Below, piece by piece: positions 51,373 through 61,100 of a stretch of 64,000 bases of DNA (the first letter of the stretch is position 1; every line of letters starts with the position of its first letter). The translations under genes and the position numbers were made by a program. Under the pieces are notes generated by a model. The model did no database searches. It was given only the letters and a program-made list of their open reading frames with translations, and was not told the origin of the DNA. This DNA is from Siphlonurus alternatus (Eukaryota; Arthropoda; Insecta; Ephemeroptera; Siphlonuridae): NCBI GenBank assembly GCA_949825025.1, contig OX463778.1, forward strand, positions 33,310,616 to 33,374,615. Direction: 5' to 3'.

Positions 51373-52626
51373 TAACCAAATTTTAATATCCCTTTATTCT
51401 GACCTAAATACATTTGACTTATTATTCGTATGGTTTTATCTTCTCGTTTTCTCTCTATATATATACATACAAACTAACTCTCTAACTAAAAGCTTTTGTA
51501 TTATGGCTTTGTATATATTCAACATTTTAATAAAACGAGGTAAGACCTTTATCTCATGAAATGTTAACTATATTTTAAATTCGTAAGTGATCATTTGTGT
51601 ATACGTAACAAACAATATTTTTATAAATATATTTATGAAAATATGTTACATAACTTATATTATAATTATTATATTAATAAATAATAACATAAATATTTTC
51701 ATATAGCATATACTGCGTATAATATGACAAAAAAAGTAAGGAAGTACAGTTTTTCCAACCTATTATATATGCCTATCAGTCGACCCTGTTTAAATAAAAA
51801 AAATATATTATATAACAATGTTATTGGATAAATTAATGAATAATTGACTGTAACCGCGGTGTGGTTGTTTAATTAATGATCGATGTTTAAATATTAATTT
51901 AAAGCTAGCTGTATTAATGAAAATTTCGTTGTCTGAAAAAAAAAATGAAGTAAAAAACGTATAGCAGTGAATATGGGAGACTGCATACAGTTAAGTTTGA
52001 TTTCGCAATCCCATTTGAAATAAGTAATTCTTGCAATTGCAGTGATATATATATAGTAATTATTCATTAAAGTTAATGTATAAGTGCAAAAAGTAAATTA
52101 CAAATTACTATTTTTACTGTTACATGACATTTTTTAATGTAACTTTGATTATACAAAAAGTTATGACAAAGTCATGACCTAAATCCATTTTAAATTTAAA
52201 TTGAGATTATTTGATTAACTCCATTAATTTAAAGTTATATAGTTAAAATATTATATGAAGATTATGTATTCTAATAATTTCATATTTATATATAAAAAAA
52301 CATAAAGTACTTTTGTATTTCATAACTGCATTGCGGAATATTTAAAAGATAATCTAAATATATAATATAAAATTATCACTTTAATAATGAGTTTTCCATT
52401 TTATTTATTTATTTATTTATTTTTATTTTGGAACTTCTTTTTGGTTGTACAAGACAAACATATGTTCAAGTCAAAATTGGACAAAATACAACATAAAAAC
52501 ATCAAACTTAAACACATTTACATAAGTTATTTAACACTATCAAACACAATCACTGACAATAATAATAAAAACAAAATACAAGCCAAAGTCACCATTAATA
52601 CTGATAAATTTTAGTTTATGTGGAAC

Positions 52627-52659
<33 letters not shown>

Positions 52660-52674
52660 CATACATATATACAT

Positions 52675-52725
<51 letters not shown>

Positions 52726-52799
52726 CATATACATACACATACACATATACACACACATACATATATGTATATATACATATACATACATATATATATATC
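52627..52799. repeat. Complex (TA)/(CA)/(CATA) microsatellite
   Basis: Mixed tracts of TA, CA and CATA directly beyond the 3' end of ORF2, separated from its stop codon by about 40 bp. Read on the minus strand it is a TATG/TA/TG tract. It could be the element's simple-repeat tail or a pre-existing target site. Confidence 0.85.
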
Positions 52800-52840
52800 A
52801 GTCAATACAATGTATATGTAAATTTATAATTTTGTTTATT

Positions 52841-55744
52841 TTATAATCCTGATAATACTTTTTCAGACATTTTATTACTCTCAAAAGCTTTAATAGAGTA
52901 AAACTCTTTATTGATCAATACATTCTTTAATTTTGTGCGAAAAAGTTTACTGGTTTTTATTTCTTTCAAACATGCTGGTAAAAATTCATAAAATTTTGCT
53001 GTTTGATACATTGCACAGTTTTTGAAAAATTGTGTGTTATGTCTTTCAGTAACTACATTCGATTTATTCCTAGTATTATAGTCATGATAGCCATCATTCT
53101 GAACATAAAAATTTGGATGATTTTTTTTGAATGAGGCACAATTTAAAATATAAATGCAAGGGACAGTTAACATTTTATTAGCCTTAAAATGTGAAACACA
53201 CGACTGTCCTTTTGGTATTCTTAAAATCGTTCTAAGTGCTCTCTTTTGCAAAACAAAACATCGATTCAATAGTTCCGATTTACATCCCCAATTTATTATG
53301 CCATATGCCAAATGTGGATAAACATACGCATAATATATGGTTAGCAAGGTTTCATGAGATACATGATTCCTGATTGTATATAACATAAAATTGGCCGAAT
53401 TTATCTTCTTACAAATCGCATTTACATGTAAAGACCAATCCAAACTTTCATTAATGTGTAGACCAAGAAACTTAACAGACTCTGCTCTTTTAATTGTTTT
53501 CCCGGCTAATTGCAACAAATAACTATTCAAAGGGATTTGTCTAGGGGAATGAAATTGGATGTATTCGGTTTTAGTTGAATTTAATATTAGCTTATTATTT
53601 GTACACCATGTATGTACCTCTTCAATAGTAAGTTTAATCTTACGAATTAATTCATCTTCGGCTTCTGCTGTGATTATAGCTGTAATATCATCAGCATACT
53701 TTACTAATACCGCATTCTTGACATGATCTGATAAGTCATTTGTTCCTGTATTAAACAATGTGGCTGACATTTTTCCTCCTTGAGGAATTCCAAGTGTAAT
53801 CGGTAATTTGTCTGATTTATATGTAATATTTTGGCCGTTAGAATTTGAATTTAATTCAACATATTGTTGTCTGTTAGTTAGATATGAATCTAATAGATTA
53901 CGACTCGAAACTCCTATTCCCATGTTATCAAATTTATTCAATAATACATCTTTATTTAGACTATCAAACGCTTTAGATAAATCAAAAAATATTGCAACGC
54001 AAAATAGTTTATTATCTATTGCCATATAAACGTGGCTTAAAAGATCAAATAGTGCTGTATCAGTAGAACGGTCTTTCAAGAATCCATGTTGACAGGGAGC
54101 AATTAAATGATTTTCTGTTTGATAATCCGTAATTTGATCGTCTAATGTATTCTCAAATAATTTGCCAAAAACAGATGTATTTGATATTGGTCTGTAATTA
54201 TCAATAATGAAAGTTGGGCCTTTTTTATGAGTTGCATAAATCTTAGAATCCTTTAAACAATCAGGAAATATACCATCTGATATTGAATGGTTAATTAAAT
54301 TAGATAAAGGGACAGACAAAACAGAAGCACAATATTTTACAACAGTATATGGTATTTCGTCTGGGCCAGCTGCATACTTATTAGGAAGGGATTTCATTCG
54401 ATTTAAAATATAAATCGGGTCTATCGAACTAAAATTTAATTTCGTTTTACTTTTATCAGAATCGACAATAATTAAAGTATTAGAATAATTAAAAGGAAAT
54501 TTTTCTGTTATTATATTTTCAATTGTCTTGACAAAAAAATTATTAAATAAATTGCAAATTAGTTTGGGGTCTGTAATCGTTACACTATTTATACATAATT
54601 CATAATTATTCTTATTATTAACATTTGTTTTCTTTGTTTTGCATTCTTTATTAATTATATTCCACGTAGCTTTAATTTTATTATTAGCTCCTTTTATTTC
54701 ATGGTCATTCTCTTTAAATTTAGCGGTGGCCATATTTTGTTTATAAGATTTCATTTCTTTTTTATAAGTAGACTCTAAATTTGGGTCAGTAAATTTTACA
54801 TCATAGTGTAAGCGTTTTAAAGAAATCCCTTGTTCGTAAAGATGGGGGTTATTGAGTATCCAGGAAGGTTTATTTTTGTTACTTGAAATTTTTCTTTTAA
54901 CAACAGGAAAAGCCTCGTTGAAATGATAAATAAAAATTTCAAGAAATTTTGACCATCTCTCATTTGAATTGAGATCAGGATTTAATAAATCATTCCATTC
55001 TTCACGAATTAATAGGAGCAGAAAATTATCTAAATTGCATTTGTCAAATATTCGTTTATAATAAAATTGTTTTTCTTGTATTTTATCAATGTTCTTCGAG
55101 TTATTTAATGTTATTGTGACTATAGTATAGTTATGGTCCGACAGAGTTGTTTTTTCAGTTTTATAATTAGTATTAATAGCAGATGTACTTTTAATAATAT
55201 GATCAATTAAAGTAGCCGTTTTCATTGTTTCTCTAGTAGCGGAACTATTAACAATTTCCAACTTGTATGAGTCCAGTATATCTTTATATAAAATTACATT
55301 TGCATCATCAATAAATAAATTAAGATTTACGTCACCCGCAATAATAAAAAAATCATCATTATTTTTACAGTATTTAATTAATTTTTTGCATAACATTTCA
55401 AATTCTTTTAAGAATGGTTTTATATTATTTTCTGTGTTGTCAAAATTCTGAATTTTTTTCATCACTCTAGATATATTAGGTGGGCGATATATAGAAGCAA
55501 AATAAATGTTTGTTGTATTGTTAATTACTAATTTCGCTATGCAGCATTCAAAAACTGATTCAATGGATTTTATTTTAATATCATTTATATTTGAACCTTT
55601 ACGAGATAGAATTACTACTCCCCCACATTTTTGAATATCTCTACAGTAATATGAAACTATCATAAAATTTTTAAAATTTATTGTTATAATTTCAGATTCA
55701 TTCAGCCCATGTTCACATAATATAATTATATCACAATCAACCAT
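52841..55744 (-). CDS. Retrotransposon ORF2: endonuclease-reverse transcriptase
   Basis: 967 residues from the first ATG. Endonuclease/exonuclease/phosphatase domain (1-210): CEHGL with E11, YRPPN with Y86, AGDVN with D138 and N140, LIDH with D181, LSDH with H204. Reverse transcriptase (about 495-760): [11 protein letters not shown] with D588, GIPQGG, KYADD (YADD 683-686). The C-terminus has HDYNTRNKS, common in Jockey/CR1/L2 elements. The frame is open upstream of this ATG to 55882. There it encodes NIKILQLNLPGLKNKLPKFE, which is the usual first strand of the endonuclease. Translation therefore probably starts before this ATG or is coupled to ORF1, and the ATG coordinate is only a minimum. 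The role is target-primed reverse transcription: nicking DNA and copying the element RNA. No stops or frameshifts are seen within it. Confidence 0.93.
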
Positions 55745-55841
55745 TTCAAGAAAATACTCAAATTTTGGTAATTTATTTTTTAGGCCTGGTAAGTTAAGCT
55801 GAAGAATTTTAATATTACATGGGGCTGAGTGAACCTGAACA

Positions 55842-58178
55842 TTAAGTTTTTTTTTTGTTGGGCAATTTGGTGGAGATACTGTTTAGTGTACTGGCACGGA
55901 GCCGTGATCTCACAGGGGAAGATTGTGTATCTTCCTGAGAATTTTTAATGGGGGATTTCAATTGAGATGTCAGATTAAAATTATCAACATTTGAACTCAA
56001 AACATTATCATTAATAGTATCATTTTTACTAATAATGGATGGTGAGACAACAGATGAAATTTCATTAATTGATTTTTCTGAATTAATTGCACTTTTCTTA
56101 GCAGCGGTTTCATCATTTTTTAATAGATCATTTGTAAATTGGAATTTATTATCTAAAATCGTTAGTAAAAAAGCTTTGAGTCTTGGATGTAATGAGTTCA
56201 GATCTATAATATCTTGATTCAATTCAAGAGAACATACAGGATCTGGTAAGGGTGGTCCTGATTCAGGCAAACTATTGTTTACCAAAACAAGACTTGACTC
56301 CTCACTCGGGGCAATACCGTCGTTCGCCGGAGCGAGGCCTGACTCCTCGCCCGGGGTGGTACCGTCGTTCACCGAAACGAGGCCTGACTCCTCGCCCGGG
56401 GTGGTACCGTCGTTCACCGAAGCGAGGCCTGACTCCTCGCCCGGGGTGGTACCGTCGTTCACCGGAGCAAGGCCTGACTCCTCGCCCGGGGTGGTACCAT
56501 CGTTCACCGAAGCGAGGCCTGACTCCTCGCCCGGGGTGGTACCGTCGTTCACCGAAACGAGGCCTGACTCCTCGCCCGGGGTGGTACCGTCGTTCACCGA
56601 AGCGAGGCCTGACTCCTCGCCCGGGGTGGTACCGTCGTTCACCGAAGCGAGGCCTGACTCCTCGCCCGGGGTGGTACCGTCGTTCACCTGAGCGAGGCCT
56701 GACTTCTCGCCCCGGGTATTAGACATCTGCTCCTTCGTGGCTGGCACTGGCAGTCCCTCCACCCTCACTATGTCAGGCGTGACAATTGAGGGGCGGGTAC
56801 TCTCTCGCAAGGTAGAGGTCTGGCATTGCCCGGAACTTACAAGGACCGCCAGGTTATTAGAAGGAGGGGCCCTAGCGGTAATGACGTTTGCTAGAGTAGA
56901 TTGGGCTGATTCCTCAAAGAGTTCTTTAACAGCTGTTTCATCATCATTACTTGCAACTTTCTTTGCTAATGTCTTCCATCCATAATAAGCAACAATTTCA
57001 ATGTCAAGATCTTTGAACACTGAAATAATGTCTTGTTTTATAGTAGACCAGTTGAAACCGTCTCTGCCACATGCTAAACGAGGAATTGCGAGTTTTTTTA
57101 TACTTAAAATCTCACAGATATTTCTTAAATTTTTTAATGCAAGTAGTATATTTGAGTGGTCAGGATAGCTGTTATGGACAGATTTAGTAACTAAGTAGAA
57201 AATAAAACTGTCATCTGAAGATAAAACAGCTACTTCACCAGTATTTTTGAGTTGACTCTTTAAAAAAGGGGTTTGTCCATGTTTTTTTTTAAATTGAGTT
57301 GCAACTCCACGTCCTTGTTTAAATGTTTTATCAACGCAGTGGGCGTAGGATGTGCCTGGTGGTGCGTCAAACAAATTTCCTTTCTTTTCAATGAAACGGA
57401 AATTTTGATGTTTTCTTTTTATATTATGGTTATTGGTATTTTTCTGATGTAAAGTCGGAAAAGACTCATTATTAATATGTTGTAGTACTGAAAATGAGTT
57501 TGATGTTGGTACTGTCGCACCCCACGGATTATAAGGAGGTCTTGGGGGGCGCAATTGGGCACCCTGGCTTTGGCGCGGCAGCTGGGTAGGGTGCGGTCGC
57601 TGAGCGCTCAGTTGGTGTTGGAGCGGGCGACGAGGTTGATACTGACTTACAACGTGCTGCCGGCGTGTCTGCTGCTGGCGTGATTGCTCAGATTGTTGCT
57701 GCTGCTGCTGGCGTGATTGCTGCTGCTGCTGTGGCACTCCAGTGAACGACGTCGGCTGAGGTGGGCGTTGTTTTGTGTAACCAGCCGTCCTCCAAGGTCG
57801 CGAGAATTGAACTGGTGACCTGTCATAATCAGCTGTTTGTATATGACATTGATGATTTGAATTTCCCTCATTATTAAAGTTATTTGCAGAAGAAATTCCA
57901 TTTCTTTCATTTAACATTAATTTAATAGTGCATTTAATTTCTTCTCTAAAGTCAGTAAATAAGTCCTTAATATTATGTTGAATTAATTTGTACATTGGAT
58001 GTACAGTCAGATCATTTGATAGGCTTTCATTGGACATATGTATATCAGAATTATTTTTATCATAATTAATAAATTGTGAGTTAAAAACCTCCGGTGTAGT
58101 TCTAGCAGGTGGCGGCCAGTGTGGTACGAGCGGAGAGCAGAACTGAGGTGTAGCACGCATGGAGCGTAGGTCCGTCAT
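55842..58178 (-). CDS. Retrotransposon ORF1 protein with TARG1-like macrodomain and 15-residue repeats
   Basis: Predicted protein of 778 residues. Order: N-terminal part with a possible helix (about 62-90); Gln/Arg/Pro-rich basic stretch (137-216), possibly nucleic-acid binding; SFSVLQHINNESFPTL (228-242); macrodomain (about 262-402); tandem repeats of GEESGLASVNDGTTP (490-624, with a decayed copy to 639); polar tail ending NKKKT. The macrodomain resembles TARG1/OARD1 in its order of motifs: GNLFDAPPGTSYAHCVDKTF, QGRGVATQFKKKHG, TGEVAVL, FYLVTK, LAIPRLACGRDGFNW. K332 and D373 sit where TARG1 has its catalytic Lys and Asp. No CCHC knuckle or RRM is seen. The ATG is the first in the frame and follows a plausible 5' UTR. 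The frame is intact. ADP-ribose binding or hydrolysis is inferred, not shown. Confidence 0.88.
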   Translation of the reverse strand: MTDLRSMRATPQFCSPLVPHWPPPARTTPEVFNSQFINYDKNNSDIHMSNESLSNDLTVHPMYKLIQHNIKDLFTDFREEIKCTIKLMLNERNGISSANNFNNEGNSNHQCHIQTADYDRSPVQFSRPWRTAGYTKQRPPQPTSFTGVPQQQQQSRQQQQQQSEQSRQQQTRRQHVVSQYQPRRPLQHQLSAQRPHPTQLPRQSQGAQLRPPRPPYNPWGATVPTSNSFSVLQHINNESFPTLHQKNTNNHNIKRKHQNFRFIEKKGNLFDAPPGTSYAHCVDKTFKQGRGVATQFKKKHGQTPFLKSQLKNTGEVAVLSSDDSFIFYLVTKSVHNSYPDHSNILLALKNLRNICEILSIKKLAIPRLACGRDGFNWSTIKQDIISVFKDLDIEIVAYYGWKTLAKKVASNDDETAVKELFEESAQSTLANVITARAPPSNNLAVLVSSGQCQTSTLRESTRPSIVTPDIVRVEGLPVPATKEQMSNTRGEKSGLAQVNDGTTPGEESGLASVNDGTTPGEESGLASVNDGTTPGEESGLVSVNDGTTPGEESGLASVNDGTTPGEESGLAPVNDGTTPGEESGLASVNDGTTPGEESGLVSVNDGTTPGEESGLAPANDGIAPSEESSLVLVNNSLPESGPPLPDPVCSLELNQDIIDLNSLHPRLKAFLLTILDNKFQFTNDLLKNDETAAKKSAINSEKSINEISSVVSPSIISKNDTINDNVLSSNVDNFNLTSQLKSPIKNSQEDTQSSPVRSRLRASTLNSISTKLPNKKKT
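56262..56711 (-). repeat. 45-bp coding minisatellite in ORF1
   Basis: A GC-rich 45-bp unit is repeated nine times with one further decayed copy, encoding GEESGLASVNDGTTP with changes mostly at the ASV positions (ASV, VSV, APV, AQV). Because 45 is a multiple of three, the reading frame is kept. The block is much richer in G and C than the rest of the element. Confidence 0.95.
56973..57395 (-). other. Macrodomain segment of ORF1 (residues about 262-402)
   Basis: Domain call within ORF1. Macrodomains bind ADP-ribose; TARG1-type members cleave ADP-ribosyl-glutamate bonds. Matching order of motifs: GNLFD at the first strand, AHCV, QGRGVATQFKKKHG at the phosphate-binding stretch, GEVAVL, FYLVTK, IPRLACGRDGFNW, and a final strand IEIVAYYG. 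Assigned from remembered family features, without a profile search. Confidence 0.82.
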
Positions 58179-61100
58179 GATGTTGTTCTCAAGAGAATAT
58201 TTATCACACCTTTATATTTAAAGTTCAATGCACAGGACACTTAGTAGTAATGTATCACTTAATAGAAAAAAACTTCAACTTTCCGATGAACAGACTTTCT
58301 TTTTAATTAAATGATAGATAAAAAGGTTAATCTTTAAAAATTACGGAGCAGTGAAAATATTGTAGTTAAGCTCTCAGGTGCTGCCACCTATTTTGTTTAA
58401 GACAAAGGGTTTAGTAAAGATTAGTGTGTGGAAATAAATTCCTTAAATCTGTTTTTAAAAGGGGAAGCTAGAAAAATTCAGTTGAAATACCAGAGGTCAG
58501 TTGCAGCAAATTGCAAGTTGCTAGCTCAAAACATGGCGGTGGTGCAGAAAACTTGGTCTTTGTAACGACGTCGTAAATTTAAAGAGCCGTTTAGTTGGAA
58601 ACTTTTAGCTCTTCTTCATAATTAGCATAATCGATGTAAGATCGGCCAAAAGTACGTGAAGAACTTGGTAAATGTACATTTATTTTATATTTTCATGGCA
58701 TTCAAACATAAATTGGAAGTGTGATTATAATAATAGATACATAAATAAATAAAAGGCTCAAAATTGTCGTACTCAAATTCATATTTTTATATACTTACGT
58801 CTATTTTATTAGGAAAGGAACTATAAGGATTTTTTTTAAATATTAAAAGCTATGCTTAATATTGATTAAATATGCCTCTTTTTGGCGTCGCTTGAATCTT
58901 AATAAAAGGAAAAAGACTTTGACACCGAAAAAGGGCGTGGCTGTCAAAATATGAACTTTTTTTTAATATTTTCGGAATTATAATTAAATAACTTCATGAA
59001 AGTGATAAAAAAGTATGTTGTAATTATTTCAATATCCCTTATTATTATTAGGTGGGTGTCAAAAAATAAATAGTTCAAATATCAAATATTCATTAAAAAT
59101 ATACATAATATGGAAACAGTGATTACTACAGAAAATGCACGTATCTTTTTTACTGTTTTCTCCTATAAATTCGCAATTATATATATTTGCATTTTTACCA
59201 ACAATCTCTATGAAAAAAAAAAATAATCTGACAAAAATAGTAACTGAAGGTAACCAAATATCTGCCGTGGAGTGTAGCACTTTCCCGATCTCCTGAAAGC
59301 TGACGTCATTCCTGTGTTAGTTGGGTGTGATTCTAGTTTGAGAGCTTGCTCAATATTCCAGTGCGAGCTGCCGGAATCACCGGTGGTACATGCAGGGGGG
59401 AACATATAACAGTGAGAGCAGCTTCCTCCCTATATGACCATCAAACAGCCTCAGGTCATGGCTTATTCAACACCTTACCAACACACTAAGCATGTACATA
59501 CCTGTCCGGTACACCTGCATGCAAAACTTATGTTATTTAACCTGAATATAAATTATGATTTAATAATTAAATTATAATGATAATTAAACAAGCTTTATAA
59601 TTTAATTTTCTTGTTTTAAGATAATAAATTTTATGTTCTTTTAGAAATAAAAAAGCTAAAGAGACAATTATTTAATGTATTGAAATTTTTTGCTTAAAAT
59701 GTGCTTTGAAATACAGCTTATTAGAAAATTAAAACTTGTCTAAACTTTCCGCTTTCTGACCTCAAATATACGCAGTTAATGAATTTATTATGTGATCATA
59801 TACTGTGACAATTCATTGGAGTGACGTCATTGGATCTACAGGGACATAGAAAAATTCAAGACATGCGACCGTAGTAAATTTAATTACAGTCTGCCATTAA
59901 AGTAGTCCGTTGTTTTGCGGAAAAAACATAGCCATTCTACTAGGTTGAAACATAGGATGTGTTTCAACATTTATGAGATAAAGTAACTAAATATTTAAAT
60001 ACAAACACAATAATTAATTTTATAATTAATTATGAAACAAAAGTCAAGAATTTAAGTGCATTTACGTGTAGTTTTGAACAAAGTTAAATTATAGATGTGT
60101 TTTTGTTTTTCATCGCTTTATTAAGAAGGTATTGTATTTATTATTTAATAATGAACGGTAAAAAAATAAAATAAATGAATAAAATGATTATTTTCTAAGA
60201 TCATATAAGATGGGTATCGTACAAAAATAAAAGGAAATAATTATCATGAAAAATTAAAACTTCCATAACTTTTGCTTTTAATATGTATTGACTTTAACAC
60301 TTTATGTCAATTCTTATTTAAATACACTTATTGTTTTCATATTTTTTTCAACAACTTTGGTGTGCAAACATTTGAGATAGAGTTACTATGAAGCCATTGC
60401 ACTATATTATTAACCTATATAATATATAACACTAATTAATTATTATTTAATCTAAAATTAAATTATATGATACAATTTAATTTTATAGTGCTTTGTTTTT
60501 GTCTACAAACATACCTTACATCAAACAGAGTATTATATAACATGATATGGTATAACTACAGTATAGAACCCGATGGTTATATGTACTGTACATCTCTGTA
60601 TGTATGACTCGTCTGCTATCAATTAATCTAGTCTGCCATGTCCAATGCTAAATTGTGTGCAGTATTCAATAAGCCAACGTTAAATCCACAGGTAAATTAT
60701 ACTCTCTCTATTATATTATAAGCTGTGATGCGGTGGCTGTATGTAATATAATTATTCACCTTTTCATATACATTATTTAACGATTAACATTTAAATTTTT
60801 TATTATTTAAATTAAATAATCCCATATTAATATAATATATATTATAGAAAATATTAATATTATTAAATAAAAATGGGTTTTAATGGAATTAATAATCCTT
60901 GTTAAATTTTCCATTGGGAAGTTTATTCATTATTAATTAAAATTTAGTTCAAGCTTTTTTTTACTTATAAATGATTCAGCATTAAAATATTATGACCACG
61001 GCGTTAAAGCATATGATGTGGAATTTAAATTTACTGATATGTCTTGTGTGTTTATACTGTTTATTTATTGAAAATTTGATCTCATAACAAAATTAAATGC

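What the first reader, a model, noticed from the sequence alone, without database searches (positions are those of the whole stretch)
56973..57395. A LINE ORF1 protein carrying a TARG1-like macrodomain with both catalytic residues
Seen: ORF1 residues 262-402 contain GNLFDAPP, AHCV, QGRGVATQFKKKHG, TGEVAVL, FYLVTK and IPRLACGRDGFNW in the order of TARG1/OARD1 macrodomains, in an intact frame upstream of an intact endonuclease-RT. K332 and D373 align with the catalytic Lys and Asp of TARG1. Known: TARG1-type macrodomains remove ADP-ribose from acidic residues, and ORF1 proteins of LINEs usually have RRM, zinc-knuckle, PHD or esterase domains. Inference: the element may reverse host ADP-ribosylation, a PARP-linked defence or repair step during integration, or bind ADP-ribosylated chromatin to find sites.
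Basis: partly seen in the sequence, partly recalled or inferred. Interest (0 to 1): 0.88.

Follow-up and report, generated by a model that had tools for sequence, protein, structure and literature searches.

The report
ADP-ribose eraser carried by LINE retrotransposons
A copy-and-paste genome parasite, here in many young copies, carries inside its first protein a close structural look-alike of a cell enzyme that erases ADP-ribose marks, which suggests that such elements may undo a repair or defence signal of their host.

The parts
52400..58390 (-). whole LINE element, about 6.0 kb (3' end uncertain by some tens of bases in the A-rich tail)
   Evidence: two other copies (L062, L063) match at 99.6 and 99.8% from 58398/58390 to 52372/52405 with unrelated flanks
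58179..58390 (-). 5' untranslated region, starting TAGGTGGCAGC
   Evidence: shared 5' boundary in three copies
55842..58178 (-). ORF1, 778 aa
   Evidence: 789-codon open frame in 52 of 66 places
56973..57395 (-). TARG1-type macrodomain (ORF1 residues 262-402)
57183..57185 (-). codon of K332, equivalent of TARG1 K84
   Evidence: K in 23 of 23 RT-backed ORF1 forms
57060..57062 (-). codon of D373, equivalent of TARG1 D125
   Evidence: D in 22 of 23 RT-backed ORF1 forms
57417..57848 (-). basic, Q/R/P-rich stretch before the macrodomain (residues 111-254, net charge +13)
   Evidence: repeats
56295..56717 (-). 45-bp tandem repeat (9.4 copies) in the acidic part of ORF1 after the macrodomain
   Evidence: some copies have 774 codons, 15 fewer
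55847..55856 (-). A10 run next to the ORF1 stop, inside the ORF1/ORF2 overlap
   Evidence: sequence
52841..55882 (-). ORF2 open frame (1013 codons), EN-like N-terminus and RT; first in-frame ATG at 55744
   Evidence: same 1013-codon frame in L062 and L063
53453..54229 (-). reverse transcriptase domain
   Evidence: Pfam RVT_1 E 4.9e-30
52400..52430 (-). 3' tail of AATA-type repeats
   Evidence: variable length in three copies

Best explanation
The feature is an ORF1p of a LINE whose only domain recognised by Pfam is a TARG1-type macrodomain with the catalytic Lys/Asp pair. Shown by computation: domain identity, predicted fold, catalytic residues, purifying selection, many copies, presence in many LINE families, exchange of the 5' module between ORF2 backbones. 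Inferred: the domain is an active ADP-ribosyl hydrolase that travels with the LINE RNP. Being basic and standing where other LINEs have RRM or zinc-knuckle parts, it probably also binds the element RNA, as human TARG1 binds RNA outside its pocket. At the nicked target it removes mono-ADP-ribose from proteins (Asp/Glu-linked) and/or from DNA or RNA ends placed there by host PARPs, so that priming, reverse transcription or ligation can go on; PAR made at the nick may also release the RNA from ORF1p. Likelihoods: macrodomain of TARG1 type 0.99; enzymatically active 0.75; acts against host ADP-ribosylation during retrotransposition 0.5.
For: Sequence and fold. Residues; K codon AAA 23/AAG 7 and D codon GAT 20/GAC 10 in 30 rows. 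Purifying selection: NG86 dN/dS 0.05-0.10 in most pairs with dS 0.4-1.7; S against N differences Fisher p 9e-15 to 2e-26 in six chosen pairs. Within one ORF1 pair (L018/L023): N-terminal part dN 0.103/dS 0.136, macrodomain 0.038/0.442. Recent spread. Module swap. No RRM, CCHC, PHD or esterase hit in window ORF1. Net positive charge in 23 of 23. Host PARP-domain matches: 22 at about 20 places, six within about 50 kb on C8. Papers, passages seen: PMC8501950 (K84 needed; thymidine-linked ADP-ribose removed); PMC5725667 (D125A inactive; ADP-ribose removed from DNA ends); PMC6582358 (RNA ends); PMC5928194 (TARG1 binds RNA, PAR competes); PMC8535693, review (PARP1/2 in L1 integration); PMC4695847, review (SIRT6 mono-ADP-ribosylates KAP1 to silence L1); PMC9772176 (retrotransposon repressed by PARP-1 in Drosophila). 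Abstract and introduction seen: PMC11102865 (PARP1-made DNA ADP-ribose at unligated Okazaki fragments, removed by TARG1).
Against: No biochemical or genetic data. In human cells loss of PARP1 or PARP2 lowers L1 movement, so an eraser is not obviously useful at every step. One family keeps Asn in place of D125 in four of four 755-codon copies, while its nearest kin L072/L073 keep Asp. L078 has Thr in place of K84; what it is was not followed. TARG1 D20 is Asn in the window copy. dN/dS is 0.17-0.26 in four very close pairs (dS 0.10) and 0.20 in L033/L038; YN00, where it ran, gave about 0.07-0.13. The N-terminal control also has lower dS than the domain (0.136 against 0.442), which may itself reflect recombination inside ORF1. 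At least one LINE with a related ORF2 has a PHD-like ORF1 and no macrodomain in the stretch read (L070). PARP gene number was not compared with any reference animal; the tool's 14 control genomes gave no PARP match.
Confidence: 0.5

Rival explanations
1. One reading: the domain binds ADP-ribosylated chromatin or PAR to bring the RNP to PARP-marked nicks; catalysis is incidental.
For: A family with Asn in place of Asp has four 755-codon copies, as expected if binding can suffice; TARG1 relocates in response to PAR (PMC5928194, passages).
Against: Lys kept in 23 of 23 and Asp in 22 of 23 RT-backed forms, with silent codon changes; binding alone would not be expected to need the Asp.
Confidence: 0.2
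2. RNA-binding replacement: the basic macrodomain stands in for the RRM/zinc knuckle as the nucleic-acid-binding part of ORF1p; the pocket is a relic.
For: No other RNA-binding domain found by Pfam in the ORF1s scanned (apart from L070); net positive in 23 of 23; human TARG1 binds RNA without sequence preference (PMC5928194, passages).
Against: TARG1 pocket mutants still bind RNA, so this role would not preserve the catalytic pair; host-type rows range from -4 to +14, so charge is not a clean marker.
Confidence: 0.2
3. Erasing silencing: ORF1p acts before integration, removing mono-ADP-ribose from a heterochromatin factor (as SIRT6-KAP1 for L1) or from the element's RNA.
For: ADP-ribosylation-dependent L1 silencing is described (review PMC4695847, passages); PARP-1 represses a retrotransposon in Drosophila (PMC9772176, passage); TARG1 clears ADP-ribose from RNA ends (PMC6582358, passages).
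Against: No data on the host's silencing factors here; acting in trans on chromatin would help all elements, not only the carrier (inference).
Confidence: 0.09
4. Artefact or host gene: a host TARG1 exon lying by chance in frame with a LINE remnant.
For: TARG1-like frames without ORF2 in the 9.5 kb read exist in this genome (L014, L027).
Against: 66 places at 99% or more, shared element ends in three copies, EN-RT overlapping ORF1 in the adjacent frame in the window and sister families.
Confidence: 0.01

Closest known systems
Human TARG1/OARD1 (C6orf130)
   Different: TARG1 is a small free-standing enzyme; here the domain sits in a transposon ORF1p between long low-complexity arms. D20 is Asn and G121 is Ala in the window copy.
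DarG antitoxin macrodomain
   Different: About 23-25% identity; bacterial toxin-antitoxin context
LINE ORF1 types I-V (scheme of Khazina and Weichenrieder, as given in Metcalfe and Casane 2014, PMC4120745)
   Same: Position upstream of EN-RT, modular make-up, exchange of ORF1 between lineages (abstract and passages)
   Different: No RRM, CCHC, PHD or esterase found in window ORF1; the word macro occurs 0 times in the main text of that paper
Viral macrodomains (coronavirus, alphavirus, hepatitis E virus)
   Same: A parasite carrying an ADP-ribose eraser against host ADP-ribosylation (PMC7232374, start of abstract in a listing)
   Different: Most viral ones have the MacroD residues; TARG1-like ones occur in viruses but few keep all residues (PMC4245714, passages)
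Lepidopteran TRAS LINEs with a helicase domain of viral origin (PMC5563155, listing and start of abstract)
   Same: A LINE that took up a foreign enzyme domain
   Different: Helicase in ORF2, not an ADP-ribosyl hydrolase in ORF1

Membership tests
TARG1/OARD1-type macrodomain | sequence closer to TARG1 than to other macrodomains of known structure | tested here: met
   phmmer TARG1 E 2e-25 against DarG 8.7e-5
TARG1/OARD1-type macrodomain | macrodomain fold closest to TARG1 | tested here: met
TARG1/OARD1-type macrodomain | catalytic Lys (K84) and Asp (D125) | tested here: met
   K332 and D373; roles from PMC8501950 and PMC5725667, passages
TARG1/OARD1-type macrodomain | ADP-ribosyl hydrolase activity | not testable with these tools
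   needs protein
LINE (non-LTR retrotransposon) | ORF2 with reverse transcriptase | tested here: met
   RVT_1 E 4.9e-30
LINE (non-LTR retrotransposon) | APE-type endonuclease N-terminal to RT | tested here: inconclusive
   No Pfam EN hit in the window ORF2 nor in L018; L015 and L028 ORF2s hit Exo_endo_phos and align with the window ORF2
LINE (non-LTR retrotransposon) | dispersed copies with common ends and a simple-repeat tail | tested here: met
   (ends compared in three copies)
LINE (non-LTR retrotransposon) | target-site duplication | tested here: inconclusive
   longest shared words 6, 8 and 7 bases in three copies; no chance level computed
CR1/L2-like lineages of the Jockey superfamily | RT phylogeny with named reference elements | not tested
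   no named reference RT set was used; my clade impression is recalled
LINE ORF1 types I-IV | RRM, CCHC knuckle, PHD or esterase in ORF1 | tested here: not met
   Pfam at E up to 1 gives only Macro and a weak NifZ match for the window ORF1; HMMER filters drop many weak matches

The most novel reading that the evidence does not exclude
LINEs and their host are in an ADP-ribosylation conflict. A catalytic TARG1-type ORF1 module is a common, perhaps prevailing, ORF1 in a large LINE group, is passed between LINE lineages by recombination just 3' of the domain, and erases ADP-ribose from the nicked target DNA (including its priming end) while the same protein surface carries the element RNA and hands it over when PAR is made at the nick. 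Slippage near the ORF1 stop makes some EN-RT as an ORF1-ORF2 fusion, so that eraser and nicking enzyme arrive together. The Asn family is a natural binding-only variant. The host answers with an enlarged PARP set.
Probability: 0.25. Interest if true: 0.95.

Novelty: new variant of a known kind. Interest (0 to 1): 0.86.

Why it matters
ADP-ribosylation acts at the kind of nick that LINEs make, and has been tied to retrotransposon silencing, yet the papers listed in my searches (listings mostly capped) show no transposon-coded eraser. An element with its own TARG1-type domain makes the question whether PARP signalling helps or blocks LINE integration testable by two point mutants, adds a new ORF1 type, and offers a natural Asn-for-Asp family as an internal control. 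It is also a non-viral parallel to viral macrodomains.

Tried and rejected
Rejected: chance or artefact, and host gene beside a LINE. TSD search: words of 6, 8 and 7 bases. One single clade of LINE macrodomains: AU p 0.0448 on a quick tree, 30 rows against 15, borderline, so one or several captures is left open.

Against my reading: the Asn family, L078 Lys-to-Thr, L014 first domain R/N, P0011 R/E; dN/dS above 0.1 in five of the close pairs named in the Against line. Row sets: the 23 RT-backed forms are WIN, L010, L015, L018, L021, L022, L023, L028, L029, L031, L033, L037, L038, L039, L041-L047, L069, L071; L022 has only ORF2 pieces. The 23 rows are a different set (with L032, L036, P0001; without L028, L069, L071). 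One search has no row for L025 (domain split by a stop). One search used 30 rows without family G, L078, and the host-type L014, L027, L079. L072-L077 were fetched as macrodomain stretches only, so their ORF2 is not shown. For the 13 forms the stretch between domain and RT was read only for L043, L044 and L045. ORF2 of the window family was read in three copies only. RT tree: places of L044, L045, L015 and L046 unsure (long branches).

Full report

The element. Two other copies, on C1 and C3 of the unnamed 455.7-Mb genome G000, are 99.6 and 99.8% identical over about 6.0 kb and end at the same 5' position (window 58390) and in an AATA-type tail near 52400, with unrelated flanks; both have the same 789-codon ORF1 and 1013-codon ORF2 frames. 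No convincing target-site duplication was seen. A genome search with the domain scored 150 of 314 candidates and listed 150 matches; 66, the window's own included, cover the whole domain at 99% or more, none of the 66 with a stop inside, and 52 of the 66 lie in a 789-codon frame (counted twice by hand). Frames of 774 codons would fit the loss of one 45-bp repeat unit.

Many families. Of 20 loci fetched, all 20 hold macrodomain sequence and 18 hold ORF2 homology; the two without are L014 and L027. Nine of the 18 have an ORF2 frame of 1000 codons or more (L009, L010, L012, L015, L016, L018, L023, L024, L028). For 13 further forms a stretch 1.9-3.8 kb downstream of the domain was fetched, and 13 of 13 encode RT. 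Of three ORF2-first loci, two carry the domain upstream (L069, L071) and one carries a PHD-like ORF1 (18.6 bits, cut-off 24) without it in the 2.9 kb read (L070). That gives 23 distinguishable forms with RT evidence (closest measured pair 93% identical in the domain). K84 is kept in 23 of 23 and D125 in 22 of 23; the exception is the L026/L028 family, with Asn in four of four 755-codon copies; a fifth, decayed locus was not inspected. Its nearest kin L072/L073 keep Asp. Over all rows, K is kept in 42 of 43 and D in 40 of 43; in the 11 further loci, K in 10 of 11 and D in 11 of 11. In another set of 23 rows (see Tried and rejected) 18 of 144 columns are invariant, both catalytic ones among them (chance for both 0.015).

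Selection. NG86 dN/dS for the domain is 0.05-0.10 in most pairs with dS 0.4-1.7; it is 0.17-0.26 in four very close pairs (dS 0.10) and 0.20 in L033/L038; many other pairs are saturated, and YN00 failed for most but gave about 0.07-0.13 where it ran. Fisher p lies between 9e-15 and 2e-26 for six chosen pairs. Codons of K (AAA 23, AAG 7) and D (GAT 20, GAC 10) vary silently among 30 rows. Between L018 and L023 the N-terminal part of ORF1 has dN 0.103 and dS 0.136, the domain 0.038 and 0.442: the domain is constrained while its neighbour is close to neutral, though the differing dS may mean recombination inside ORF1.

Module swapping. L018 and L023 share 93% of the domain but 56% of the RT, while L018 and L010 share 36% and 70%; L043 and L044 share 80% and 38% (21 rows, 210 pairs, Spearman 0.52). 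Identity between L018 and L023 falls from 93-97% to 34-60% just 3' of the domain, and dS rises to 0.83 in the ORF1 C-terminus and 1.5-1.8 in ORF2. L066 (L044) and L068 (L043) are contiguous, overlapping ORF1-ORF2 units; L067 (L045) has an EN piece overlapping ORF1 and the RT frame after a gap. This agrees with the reticulate ORF1 evolution described for CR1 and L2 lineages (PMC4120745, abstract and passages). Whether all LINE macrodomains go back to one capture is unsettled (AU p 0.0448).

Beyond this genome. Protein searches returned P0001 (77% identical in the domain; best full-ORF1 matches in G000 54-58%, 63 of 448 candidates scored) and P0003 (groups with L015), both from source lgn, organism not given. 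P0005 pairs the domain with PHD-like and GDSL-like parts (both below Pfam cut-offs), P0008 with an OSK/GDSL part, and P0007 has a CCHC motif that I saw by eye but no Pfam hit; that they are LINE ORF1s is inference, since their contigs could not be read. P0004 (Frankliniella), P0010 (RWD-Macro) and P0002 (double domain) look like host genes (inference).

Host side. G000 has 22 PARP catalytic-domain matches at about 20 places, all over the Pfam cut-off, six within about 50 kb on C8. That this is many for an insect is recalled, not tested; matching is exon by exon, so gene number is approximate. L014 (a tandem pair, first copy R/N, second K/D) and L027 are TARG1-like frames without ORF2 and are probably host genes.

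Mechanism. Pfam finds no other domain in the window ORF1: a short arm, a basic Q/R-rich stretch (+13), the basic domain (+10), an acidic repeat-rich stretch (-30). The domain is net positive in 23 of 23 RT-backed forms, but host-type rows range from -4 to +14. TARG1 removes ADP-ribose from Asp/Glu, thymidine in ssDNA, and DNA and RNA ends, and binds RNA with PAR competing (PMC8501950, PMC5725667, PMC6582358, PMC5928194; passages). PARP1/2 act at L1 integration (review PMC8535693, passages; the original paper was not held), and mono-ADP-ribosylation helps to silence L1 (review PMC4695847, passages). The best-supported account is an active eraser that also carries RNA; its substrate and step are inference.

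Novelty. Full-text searches listed no paper on a macrodomain in a LINE ORF1; only searches listed every paper that matched. PMC4120745 has 0 uses of macro, and PMC4245714, which surveys these enzymes across life, has 0 of transpos. Most subscription journals, preprints and Repbase itself were not searchable. I file it as a new variant (a new ORF1 type) of a known kind.

Noticed in passing
window 55842-55882; L010, L015, L018, L023, L028, L066, L068: ORF2 overlaps the end of ORF1; in WIN, L010, L018 and L068 the first in-frame ATG lies 100-386 nt after the ORF1 stop. An A-rich run often stands just before that stop. ORF2 is in the -1 frame in six of eight loci and +1 in the window and L066: possible frameshifting or reinitiation.
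   Followed up: partly
G000 C8:24.92-24.97 Mb: Six PARP catalytic-domain matches within about 50 kb, 22 in the genome: possible PARP family expansion in the host.
   Followed up: no
L026, L028 (and L005-L008): LINE family with a Cys-rich ORF1 N-terminus and a macrodomain with Asn in place of the catalytic Asp, in four 755-codon copies; its nearest kin keep Asp.
   Followed up: partly
L014 (G000 C3:10.61 Mb): 568-codon frame with two TARG1-like domains, the first with R/N in place of K/D, followed by a SYKQPSQYQSD-type repeat: looks like a host pseudo-enzyme/enzyme pair.
   Followed up: no
window 56295-56717: 45-bp repeat in ORF1 whose copy number may vary between element copies (774 against 789 codons), encoding an acidic stretch.
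   Followed up: partly
whole genome G000: No (TTAGG)7, while the tool's backwards control pattern matches 834 times on one strand: a satellite or an unusual telomere repeat.
   Followed up: no
L070 (G000 C6:28.49 Mb): A LINE with related ORF2 but a PHD-like ORF1 and no macrodomain in the 2.9 kb read, so ORF1 types coexist on similar ORF2s.
   Followed up: partly
P0005, P0007, P0008: Proteins from other sources that join a TARG1-like domain to PHD-like/GDSL-like parts, a CCHC motif seen by eye, or an OSK/GDSL part: possibly further LINE ORF1 types.
   Followed up: partly
Fusobacterium phage FNU3 and Lactobacillus phage LpeD (L064, L065): Phage genes encode stand-alone TARG1-like macrodomains that keep the K and D motifs by eye.
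   Followed up: no
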